Origin: Clostridiales bacterium
GTDB taxonomy: Bacteria > Bacillota > Clostridia > Christensenellales > QALW01
NCBI GenBank assembly: GCA_015069575.1
Contig: SVIH01000012.1
Location: 1 to 64,000 of the forward strand
DNA: 64,000 nt
Direction: 5' to 3'
A model generated the notes under the pieces. That model searched no databases and was not told the DNA's origin. It was given only the letters and a program-made list of their open reading frames with translations. The stretch's first letter is position 1; the number at the start of each line of letters is the position of its first letter. Positions 29,837 to 32,399 of the stretch are shown one piece after another. Both the position numbers and the translations under genes were made by a program.

Positions 29837-30033
29837 AACAATCCATCCGCTATTTGATATACAGTTTTATTTAAACCCTTCTTTTTTCCGTAGCGATTTT
29901 CAAAATCGTAGCGGGTCATATTCAACGTGCGCTGCCATCCTACGTCGCTATCGCTAATTTTGCCGCCGTTAATGCTTAATAAATGTTCAATAACTTCTCG
30001 GTAATGTTGTTTTTCTCTTGCCATATCACACAC
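29833..30033 (-). CDS. Hypothetical phage protein
   Basis: ORF in operon. Confidence 0.45.
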   Translation of the reverse strand: MCDMAREKQHYREVIEHLLSINGGKISDSDVGWQRTLNMTRYDFENRYGKKKGLNKTVYQIADGLL

Positions 30034-30934
30034 TCCTTAATTCCCAGCCACCGCTTTGGTATATAACTTTTGCTTTGTTATCTTTAAACGTTGCATTTTC
30101 AGAAAGTATTAATCCGCTTTGTTTGTCCCACGTGCTATAAGGCGAATTTGCAATAATAGCCTGTCCTTTTGCTTCGCTGATAGATGCGCTACCGCACACT
30201 TTGCTGATAGATGCGCTATCGCACACTTTGCTGATAGATGCGCTATCGCACACATAGCTGATAGATGCGCTACCGTACACTTTGCTGATAGATGCGCTAT
30301 CGCACACATAGCTGATAGATGCGCTACCGCACACTTCGCTGATAGATGCGCTATCGCACACTTTGCTGATAGATGCGCTACCGTACACTTCGCTGATAGA
30401 TGCGCTATCGCACACTTTGCTGATAGATGCGCTACCGCACACTTTGCTGATAGATGCGCTACCGTACACTTCGCTGATAGATGCGCTACCGCACACTTCG
30501 CTGATAGATGCGCTATCGCACACTTTGCTGATAGATGCGCTACCGTACACATAGCTGATAGATGCGCTACCGCACACTTCAACATTCTTACAGTCTTTAA
30601 TATAGTGGTTCTTGCCACTATCAATTTTTAATCCGTCAATGCCAATATGTATATGCTCTTTCGCCCATTCCTTAACAGCAGTAATCATTCTGCTTTTTTC
30701 GTATTCTTCCACAAACCAATCGGGGCGAATATCCTGGTCTACCTTAAACGTCCATCCGTCAATATCTGAAAACGCATCATCATTTTTCGGGTATAATTCC
30801 GCACGAACAAAAAGCCTTTCGGCATTTGTTCTGTTGTCCTCTATGCCTAACTCGTTTAACATATCGGTATGACTGTCATAATCGGGTATAAATACCCTGT
30901 CCTTTAAAATAATTGCTGATTTGAATTTACACAT
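30026..30934 (-). CDS. Phage repeat protein with nonapeptide SASIS-x-V-[CY]-[GD] repeats (beta-helix-like)
   Basis: 15 contiguous 9-aa repeats flanked by unique N- and C-terminal sequence. Confidence 0.8.
   Translation of the reverse strand: MCKFKSAIILKDRVFIPDYDSHTDMLNELGIEDNRTNAERLFVRAELYPKNDDAFSDIDGWTFKVDQDIRPDWFVEEYEKSRMITAVKEWAKEHIHIGIDGLKIDSGKNHYIKDCKNVEVCGSASISYVYGSASISKVCDSASISEVCGSASISEVYGSASISKVCGSASISKVCDSASISEVYGSASISKVCDSASISEVCGSASISYVCDSASISKVYGSASISYVCDSASISKVCDSASISKVCGSASISEAKGQAIIANSPYSTWDKQSGLILSENATFKDNKAKVIYQSGGWELRSV
30176..30580 (-). repeat. 27-bp in-frame tandem repeat x15
   Basis: gatagatgcgctaccgcacacttcgct-type units, no spacers. Confidence 0.9.
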
Positions 30935-30968: not shown

Positions 30969-31373
30969 CGCAAGCATACCCGAACCCACCGCTTGAATTA
31001 TTAAAAGTTTTCTGATATAATGTTTTTGCCGAATGGCACAAGAAAGGTTGATGACATATTGTCAGAATTTTTGAATGTGCCCGTTCCTGAAGGTAACAAA
31101 TGATGCTATCGGCACTTAAACATCTGCAGTCCCGTTCTGCATAAGTGATTTTGCTTAAAAAGAAGCAAGAGGGAGGATTCCTTTTGTGAGAAACGGGATA
31201 TAATGTTCTCACCATAGAACCACTTATATTCCTTATCTCTGCATTAAGTTTCAGGTAAACAAAAACGGGAGATAATGTCCGTAAACCTCTACGGGCATTT
31301 TTCTTTTGCATCAAAATTTCTTCGTGATAATAGATACAGTAGTTCAAGTAAAATGGGCTCGGGTATGCTTGCG
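30969..31373 (-). ncRNA. Candidate structured RNA closed by a 20-bp terminal helix
   Basis: 30969-30988 CGCAAGCATACCCGAACCCA vs inverted 31354-31373 TGGGCTCGGGTATGCTTGCG; further inverted 30992-30997/31343-31348; internal hairpins and complementary loops. Confidence 0.6.
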
Positions 31374-31379
31374 GTGATT

Positions 31380-31396
31380 GTTGACACTTTGTCAAC
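31380..31396. promoter_or_regulatory. Putative repressor operator GTTGACACTTTGTCAAC
   Basis: Palindrome matching GTTGAC-N-GTCAAC at 31632-31650. Confidence 0.55.
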
Positions 31397-31604
31397 CTCT
31401 TGTGCAAAAAAAACACTTTATTACTTCGCCTTTCGGGATTTTTAAGACAGTGCATAGCTTCTCTATTTCAGAAACAGTCCAATCATTTTTGCCATTTATT
31501 TTTGAATTAAACGACGTTAGCGAAATGCCCATAATTCTTGCACATTTTGATTGTGTTAATCCATTTTGAACAAGTCTTTTCTTTATTTCCGTTGTATTTG
31601 TCAA
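31392..31604 (-). CDS. Cro-like HTH regulator
   Basis: KKRLVQNGLTQSKCARIMGISLTSFNSKINGKNDWTVSEIEKLC. Confidence 0.8.
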   Translation of the reverse strand: MTNTTEIKKRLVQNGLTQSKCARIMGISLTSFNSKINGKNDWTVSEIEKLCTVLKIPKGEVIKCFFCTRG

Positions 31605-31631: not shown

Positions 31632-31650
31632 GGTTGACTTTCTGTCAACC
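31632..31650. promoter_or_regulatory. Putative repressor operator GGTTGACTTTCTGTCAACC
   Basis: 7-bp-arm palindrome in cro/CI intergenic region; half sites near 31681 and 31725. Confidence 0.65.
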
Positions 31651-31763
31651 ACACCACCAATAATAGCATAGCGTTTCCTTGTTGTCAACTCTTTTTTTAA
31701 AAAAATGAAAAAATTTTTTAAAAAGTTGACAAAACAGAAATTTAGTGATATATTTTTTATGAG

Positions 31764-32399
31764 GTGATTGTATTGTCAATCTATAACAGAATAAAGCAAA
31801 AACGAATTGAATTAGGAATGACTCAACAAGACCTTGCTGAAAAGGTTGGCTTAAAGACAAAAGGTGCTATAAGCCGAATTGAATCAGGCGATAGAGATAT
31901 AAACCAAAGGCAAGTAATTGATTTTGCAAAAGCTTTGCACACGACTCCTGCATATTTAATGGGATGGGAAGAAGAGGCAAATTCAATTGGTGTATTTTTA
32001 AATTATCCTATATATAAAGCCCCGTTATACGAATCTGTATCCGCAGGTTTTGGCGCATATGCTAATGATTTAATTGTTGATTATATACCCATATTTGTAG
32101 GTTGTGAAAACGAAGCAAAAAAAACTTTGTGCATTCGCGTATCTGGTGACAGTATGTTTCCAAAGATTGAAGAAGGCGATATTATTCAGGTCAATACAGA
32201 CGAAGAGGTTAAAAACGGAGACATCGCCGTATTACTAATAGATAATGAAGAAGGCGTTGTTAAAAAAATTATTATTGGTAATAACTTTATTGAACTGCAC
32301 TCTTTCAATCCAATGTATCCGGTACGAAAATTTATAGGTACAGAGATATCAAGATTAAAAATTGTCGGAAAAGTTAAAAAGGTTATAAAAAGCTTTTGA
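31764..32399 (+). CDS. CI/LexA-like repressor (HTH + S24 peptidase)
   Basis: MTQQDLAEKVGLKTKGAISRIESGDRDI; SGDSMFPKIEEGDIIQVN. Confidence 0.9.
   Translation: MIVLSIYNRIKQKRIELGMTQQDLAEKVGLKTKGAISRIESGDRDINQRQVIDFAKALHTTPAYLMGWEEEANSIGVFLNYPIYKAPLYESVSAGFGAYANDLIVDYIPIFVGCENEAKKTLCIRVSGDSMFPKIEEGDIIQVNTDEEVKNGDIAVLLIDNEEGVVKKIIIGNNFIELHSFNPMYPVRKFIGTEISRLKIVGKVKKVIKSF

What the first reader, a model, noticed from the sequence alone, without database searches (positions are those of the whole stretch)
30969..31373. 405-nt candidate structured RNA in the prophage switch region, with a 20-bp closing helix and two complementary loop pairs
Seen: the ends are inverted repeats (30969-30988 vs 31354-31373). 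The only imperfection is A/C when read on plus but G.U when read on minus, so a minus-strand RNA (same direction as the early genes) forms an uninterrupted 20-bp helix. It is followed inward by CTTGAA/TTCAAG. Inside are hairpins GTGAGAA..TTCTCAC (31186-31212) and TGCAG..CTGCA (31125-31141) whose loops are complementary: AACGGGA 31192-31198 with TCCCGTT 31130-31136. A second set, AACGGG 31264-31269 with CCCGTT 31080-31085, is also complementary. A TGACA-ATA-TGTCA hairpin sits inside another stem. The motif ACATTAT(A/C)TC recurs three times on the minus strand. No convincing ORF. A repressor-operator-like palindrome lies 7 bp upstream of the RNA 5' end. Inference: a kissing-loop-rich phage RNA. 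I do not recognise it as GOLLD, ROOL, OLE, HEARO or raiA, but could not search.
Basis: partly seen in the sequence, partly recalled or inferred. Interest (0 to 1): 0.78.

Follow-up and report, generated by a model that had tools for sequence, protein, structure and literature searches.

The report
FuFi-1 RNA opposing a prophage switch
The sequence holds a real structured RNA from a known but functionally unexplained family (FuFi-1), and comparison with about 35 relatives shows that it sits in the on/off switch of dormant viruses, faces the promoter that starts virus growth, is longer than its database entry, and probably begins with a tiny translated peptide.

Summary
Rfam's FuFi-1 (RF02986, function unknown) matches 31101-31304 on the PLUS strand (75.4 bits, cut-off 59.6). 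A plus-strand promoter (30993-31021) and terminator (31274-31299) predict a ~276-nt RNA. About 35 relatives show that FuFi-1 is longer than Rfam's model: a 5' domain carries a Shine-Dalgarno site and an 11-39-codon ORF in every member tested. Eight helices, three of them pseudoknot or loop contacts, are supported by own-versus-swapped pairing (p<=0.0004). Context is uniform: FuFi-1 reads toward the cI-like repressor and faces the early promoter head-on, so it lies antisense in the early transcript. Best reading: a phage lysogeny-switch RNA opposing early transcription, with a translated, switch-like 5' domain. Identity is near certain; mechanism is inferred.

The parts
30993..31021 (+). Promoter of the RNA: TTGAAT, 17 nt, extended -10 TGATATAAT; start expected near 31028
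   Evidence: same promoter type 19-32 nt upstream of the SD in the 31 members tested, 29 of them scoring >=9
31028..31303 (+). Predicted full FuFi-1 transcript, about 276 nt (ends inferred from promoter and terminator)
31101..31304 (+). Part covered by Rfam model FuFi-1 (RF02986)
   Evidence: 75.4 bits, E=3.3e-14, model 1-175; alignment
31024..31088 (+). Conserved 5' domain not in the Rfam model: P1 31035-31040 / 31076-31081 enclosing hairpin A 31052-31056 / 31060-31064
   Evidence: profile R1 built without the window, E=1.2e-4; swap test P1 z -6.1, hairpin A z -4.6
31043..31047 (+). Shine-Dalgarno-like AAAGG
   Evidence: position conserved in 31 of 31 anchored members
31059..31103 (+). Leader ORF, TTG start, (M)SEFLNVPVPEGNK, 14 aa plus stop
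   Evidence: ORF at this place in 31 of 31 anchored members and in L002, L003; translation inferred
31125..31141 (+). P3 hairpin UGCAG-UCCCGUU-CUGCA; its loop is one side of pseudoknot PK1
31264..31270 (+). AACGGGA, partner of the P3 loop (PK1), directly after conserved GGTAAACAAA 31254-31263
   Evidence: swap test z -9.2; window own -10.9, swapped -2.3 kcal/mol
31168..31172 (+). AGAGG, possible partner of the terminator loop CCUCU 31286-31290 (family-level support; not above swapped partners for the window itself)
   Evidence: z -9.1 for the family
31274..31299 (+). Intrinsic terminator hairpin followed by TTTCTTTT
30969..30988 (.). Left arm of the 20-bp inverted repeat, just upstream of the -35 box
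31354..31373 (.). Right arm of the inverted repeat, between the terminator and the cro-like stop codon
31392..31604 (-). Cro-like 70-aa HTH protein gene
   Evidence: DUF739 and HTH_26 above cut-off; PHROG repressor families
31660..31688 (-). Early promoter TTGACA-17-TATTAT facing the FuFi-1 promoter
31773..32399 (+). cI-like repressor gene (HTH_3 plus Peptidase S24)

Best explanation
This is a plus-strand FuFi-1 RNA in the lysogeny switch of a prophage. SHOWN by sequence comparison: it is a FuFi-1 member; it has its own promoter-like and terminator sites; the family has a 5' domain with a ribosome-binding site and short ORF, a conserved fold with three loop or pseudoknot contacts, and a fixed position, pointing toward the cI-like repressor and facing the early promoter, so that it is complementary to the early part of the lytic transcript. 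INFERRED: it is made on the lysogenic side of the switch and lowers early-gene expression of the resident or an incoming phage by convergent transcription and antisense pairing with the early mRNA (it would work like a large OOP-type antisense RNA). Its conserved unpaired nucleotides and ribosome-loading site suggest a second, trans-acting part: ribosomes on the leader ORF would open P1, hairpin A and the competing helix Px and so set the fold. Identity and context are about 0.95; the opposition mechanism about 0.35-0.4.
For: Rfam match over cut-off; promoter and terminator; 5' domain found by a model built without the window and by a 5'-only pattern whose four hits all carry FuFi-1; eight helices with own pairing better than swapped, p<=0.0004; leader ORF in 31 of 31 anchored members and in L002, L003; same-strand HTH repressor downstream in 30 of 36 loci and none upstream on that strand; facing near-consensus early promoter in 24 of 30 loci against 2.6% of shuffles; cI and cro assignments.
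Against: No expression data. Nucleotides conserved across unrelated phages are not needed for self-antisense pairing, so antisense action cannot be the whole function. Two related phages lack it, so it is not essential. Peptide conservation cannot be separated from structural constraint on the same bases. G-U counts favour plus for P1 and terminator but not for PK1 or P4.
Confidence: 0.4

Rival explanations
1. FuFi-1 is mainly a translation-responsive attenuator, the leader of a lysogeny-establishment transcript in the position of lambda P_RE: leader translation decides P1 versus Px, which decides pseudoknot formation and termination; readthrough makes antisense-cro and cI-sense RNA.
For: Always points to cI; leader ORF and mutually exclusive P1/Px; terminator loop in a conserved contact; in some loci FuFi-1 lies directly upstream of cI (L009, L036, L032, L037, L089, L002).
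Against: cI has its own good promoter in the gap in most loci examined; in most loci the cro-like gene lies between on the other strand.
Confidence: 0.25
2. FuFi-1 is a stand-alone trans-acting RNA, an accessory (moron) cassette that acts on host or competing phages, and its place in the switch only gives it expression in lysogens.
For: Own promoter and terminator; conserved unpaired motifs; replaced by an unrelated 280-aa gene in a close relative and almost fully lost in Funu2; a prophage ncRNA causing superinfection exclusion is known (PMC7067206).
Against: Fixed orientation toward cI and against the early promoter in distant phages would be unnecessary; no target known.
Confidence: 0.25
3. 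The cassette is a mobile or invertible element bounded by terminal inverted repeats.
For: Inverted repeats bracket the whole transcription unit in 13 of 33 loci; loss and replacement in relatives.
Against: Arms differ in sequence at every locus and can include part of the cro-like gene (L055, L061) or the promoter (L014, L065, L034), so they are not transposon ends; orientation toward cI never varies; no recombinase specific to the cassette seen.
Confidence: 0.05
4. The minus-strand RNA, closed by the 20-bp helix, is the functional structured RNA.
For: Fold z -7.2 on minus; the single repeat mismatch is G.U on minus; both arms lie within the early transcript.
Against: Rfam model, promoter and terminator are on plus; arms are not conserved in the family; P1 has 21 G-U pairs on plus against 1 on minus; arm mismatches split evenly between strands.
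Confidence: 0.05

Closest known systems
FuFi-1 RNA (Rfam RF02986)
   Same: Match over the whole 175-position model above the gathering score; same hairpins, GGUAAACAAA motif and terminator.
   Different: Low score for the family (75 against up to 151 bits) with a window-specific insertion in the P5 region; the real RNA extends about 75 nt 5' of the model start, with a domain Rfam does not model.
Lambda OOP RNA
   Same: Small RNA with its own promoter, antisense to the early operon of a temperate phage, reading toward the repressor side (OOP role: PMC12197685, PMC7067206).
   Different: No sequence relation tested or claimed; FuFi-1 is larger, ornate, has a leader ORF, and lies at the start of the early transcript rather than over cII.
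STnc6030 of prophage BTP1
   Same: Prophage antisense RNA expressed in lysogens; that one gives superinfection exclusion (PMC7067206).
   Different: STnc6030 is antisense to late tailspike genes and not described as a conserved ornate fold.
Lambda P_RE establishment transcript (own knowledge)
   Same: Start site beyond cro, reading antisense through cro toward cI.
   Different: FuFi-1 has a strong consensus-like promoter and a terminator before cro; no CII homologue was looked for.
RNAI / CopA-type plasmid antisense RNAs (own knowledge)
   Same: Hairpin-rich cis-antisense RNAs that can pair through loops.
   Different: Those drift freely in sequence; FuFi-1 keeps primary-sequence motifs across distant phages.

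Membership tests
FuFi-1 (RF02986) | Covariance-model score at or above the gathering threshold | tested here: met
   75.4 against 59.6 bits, full model 1-175
FuFi-1 (RF02986) | Core hairpin P3, AAGUG, GGUAAACAAA and terminal hairpin in order | tested here: met
FuFi-1 (RF02986) | Shared 5' domain and leader ORF (found here, not part of the Rfam definition) | tested here: met
   E=1.2e-4 with a model built without the window; ORF
GOLLD, ROOL, OLE, HEARO, raiA | Rfam match | tested here: not met
   no such match in the window
Lambda OOP-type antisense RNA | Antisense position in the early operon with its own promoter and terminator | tested here: met
Lambda OOP-type antisense RNA | Pairs with and lowers early mRNA, RNase III-dependent | not testable with these tools
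   needs experiment
cis leader / attenuator of cI | Terminator readthrough changed by leader translation | not testable with these tools
   needs transcription assay; architecture compatible
Transposon-like element with terminal inverted repeats | The same terminal repeats at different copies | tested here: not met
   arms differ at every locus; one FuFi-1 copy in the window's genome

The most novel reading that the evidence does not exclude
FuFi-1 is a large, translated riboregulator dedicated to the temperate-phage decision: head-on to the early promoter, with a leader peptide that toggles P1 versus Px and thereby a pseudoknot-tied terminator, and with locus-specific inverted repeats that fold the antisense cassette out of the early mRNA. 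This would be a kind of lysogeny control not known to me from other phages.
Probability: 0.25. Interest if true: 0.85.

Novelty: new member of a known kind. Interest (0 to 1): 0.6.

Why it matters
FuFi-1 is an orphan family: no held open-access paper names it. Tying it to one fixed place in temperate-phage switches, extending it by a 5' domain with a likely peptide, and naming its pseudoknots turns an unexplained motif into a testable regulator of the lysis-lysogeny choice in phages of Firmicutes and relatives.

Tried and rejected
Minus-strand RNA closed by the 20-bp helix: rejected as the main product (Rfam, promoter, terminator). ctRNA_p42d match (18.8 bits, E 0.45): chance. Transposon ends: arms not conserved. 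blastn of the window RNA against phages gave only a 30-nt chance match; L009 and L024 RNAs gave none in phages or, for L009, plasmids. Pattern hits L010, L012, L013 and L022 were scanned and are not FuFi-1; L011, L015 and L017-L021 were not scanned (other phyla). MAFFT misaligned P1 in the 5' domain, so helices were tested with anchored windows and a swap test rather than on that alignment; the 5'-domain model R1 is sequence-only. Local hairpins P0 and hpB and an SD x GNTCC helix were not supported by the swap test. A genome search with R1 gave two known members and mostly weak hits just under E=0.001 that were not followed. The 2017 paper I remember as defining FuFi-1 is not held, so whether it already noted phage context could not be checked.

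Full report
OBSERVATION. The 405-nt stretch folds far better than dinucleotide shuffles on both strands (plus -136.8 kcal/mol, z -7.8; minus -124.5, z -7.2), so folding alone cannot choose a strand.

IDENTITY. cmscan of the whole window finds FuFi-1 (RF02986; typed 'Gene; sRNA') at 31101-31304 on the plus strand, 75.4 bits against a gathering score of 59.6, E=3.3e-14 (alignment). A plus-strand promoter with an extended -10 (30993-31021) and an intrinsic terminator (31274-31299) bracket it. The transcript should start near 31028 and end near 31303. The window's genome has one copy.

RELATIVES. Pattern and family searches gave about 35 further members, mostly in IMG/VR contigs, some in genomes of the same phylum and class, and one in a named but unannotated human-gut phage record, MT835537.

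A LARGER RNA. Upstream of the Rfam core the members have a conserved domain: stem P1 (GGCAA/UUGCC type; window GGCACA 31035-31040 / UGUGCC 31076-31081) enclosing hairpin A (window UGACA-UAU-UGUCA; others UGGUC/GACCA, GUCA/UGAC, GGA/UCC). One Rfam hit (L031) lacks a recognisable 5' domain. The domain is tied to FuFi-1 in three ways: a pattern of this domain alone hit four viral contigs and all four carry FuFi-1; in a looser scan the hits with an SD at the right spacing and the core motifs downstream gave five further members by eye; and a profile built without the window finds it at 31024-31088, directly upstream of the core. A sigma-A-type promoter lies 19-32 nt upstream of the SD in the 31 members tested; 29 of 31 score >=9, against 21% of shuffles.

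FOLD. I tested each helix by comparing a sequence's own two strands with strands swapped between sequences (29-30 members, 5000 permutations): P1 z -6.1, hairpin A -4.6, Px (5'-domain GCC with core GGC) -5.2, P2 -9.0, P3 -6.9, PK1 (P3 loop with the strand after GGUAAACAAA) -9.2, P4 -8.3, P5 region with terminator loop -9.1; all p<=0.0004. In the window PK1 is UCCCGUU 31130-31136 with AACGGGA 31264-31270 (-10.9 kcal/mol own, -2.3 swapped). For Px, P2 and the terminator-loop contact the window itself is not better than swapped partners, so these rest on the family. P1 and Px use the same GCC strand and exclude each other. G-U pairs favour plus for P1 (21 to 1) and the terminator (65 to 21) but not for PK1 or P4. 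Related sequences inflate such tests; the z-scores are not independent probabilities, and the windows were placed by me after seeing the sequences.

LEADER ORF. All 31 anchored members have an SD-like site, a start codon 12-17 nt after the start of the SD, and an ORF of 11-32 residues, typically M[TS][KQE][LF]L.[LMV]P. In L014 and L036 the nucleotides and the frame relative to the GCC anchor change, yet the peptides keep KL[TS]CPVP. Two distant members, L002 and L003, lack most of the nucleotide consensus but keep SD, start and an ORF with SLP (39 and 20 residues). In the window it is 31059-31103, (M)SEFLNVPVPEGNK. Because the same bases are structurally constrained, this does not prove translation; I rate it likely (about 0.75).

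CONTEXT. In the window the order is early genes (minus), FuFi-1 (plus), cro-like gene (minus, DUF739/HTH_26), early promoter (minus), cI-like gene (plus, HTH_3 + Peptidase S24). Across 36 loci a same-strand HTH repressor lies downstream in 30 and none lies upstream on that strand. Five of the six others have under 1.1 kb of downstream flank; one (L034) shows none within 2.5 kb. FuFi-1 sits after a cro-like gene or directly in the cro-cI interval. In 24 of 30 loci a near-consensus promoter between FuFi-1 and the repressor reads back into FuFi-1 (2.6% of shuffles). So the RNA is convergent with the early promoter and complementary to the early transcript. Of ten small downstream proteins scanned against Pfam, nine have HTH matches.

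DISPENSABLE. A phage with a 92%-identical cro-like protein (L084) has a 280-aa gene in FuFi-1's place and orientation, without a recognised domain. Fusobacterium phage Funu2, related to L042 around this region, keeps only about the last 50 nt with the terminator.

INVERTED REPEATS. Comparable repeats (alignment score >=26) bracket the unit in 13 of 33 loci, against 0.25 expected from cross-locus pairs (a direct-repeat control gave 4). Their sequences differ at every locus. Some arms contain promoter elements (L014, L034, L065), some a piece of the cro-like gene (L055, L061; and reading). Mismatches in the 11 significant loci are 29 transitions and 6 transversions, evenly split between plus- and minus-type wobbles. 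In the related pair L034/L028 only L034 has the downstream arm. Both arms should always lie within the early transcript, so a helix that folds out the antisense cassette is possible, but a scar of DNA template switching is as likely. This is unexplained.

MECHANISM. Shown by comparison: membership, strand, architecture, fold, position. Inferred: opposition to early transcription by convergence and antisense pairing, with a ribosome-dependent 5' switch. Conserved unpaired nucleotides argue that antisense pairing is not the whole story. The comparison with OOP, STnc6030 (PMC12197685, PMC7067206) and P_RE concerns how it may work, not descent.

NOVELTY. The window RNA is a new member of a known family. 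What may be new is the 5' domain, the likely peptide, the loop contacts and the fixed head-on position; the defining paper could not be read here, and no held paper names FuFi-1.

Noticed in passing
window 30109-30640: Tandem ~27-bp repeats inside the 302-aa gene 30026-30934 (minus) give a protein with repeated SASIS-VCG/VYG units and long ORFs in three further frames; only weak matches to PHROG families of unknown function.
   Followed up: partly
window 31380-31397, 31633-31650 and about 31674-31740: Operator-like palindromes GTTGACnnnnnnGTCAACC: one at the end of the cro-like gene, others around the divergent early and cI promoters, suggesting a remote repressor site near the FuFi-1 terminator.
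   Followed up: partly
L084 2311-3153 minus: A 280-aa protein with a possible membrane segment occupies the FuFi-1 slot in a close relative of L035; no recognised Pfam or PADLOC domain above cut-off.
   Followed up: partly
L042 flanks of FuFi-1: A direct repeat of about 55 bp (TTTTTTAATATTTTTATTTTCAA...GGACTAGCCTTAGAT) lies upstream of the FuFi-1 unit and again directly after its terminator.
   Followed up: no
L088 (Fusobacterium phage Funu2) 3001-3063: Remnant of FuFi-1: only the terminator end is left, next to a 54-codon gene that corresponds to the one beside FuFi-1 in L042.
   Followed up: partly
control genome Bacillus subtilis: A FuFi-1 match below the family cut-off appears in two of the genome searches; its place is not shown.
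   Followed up: no
L009, L014, L016, L029, L036, L037, L040, L041, L051, L055, L061: Between 5' domain and core these members share a further domain of about 130 nt (GTCGCAA..GTGG.ACCA...CACTT.AAACTGG...) that the window lacks.
   Followed up: no
L035 10083-10163; L084 127-204; L030 1551-1601: Other Rfam sRNA motifs (DUF3800-VII, skipping-rope, 6A) occur in the same phage regions.
   Followed up: no
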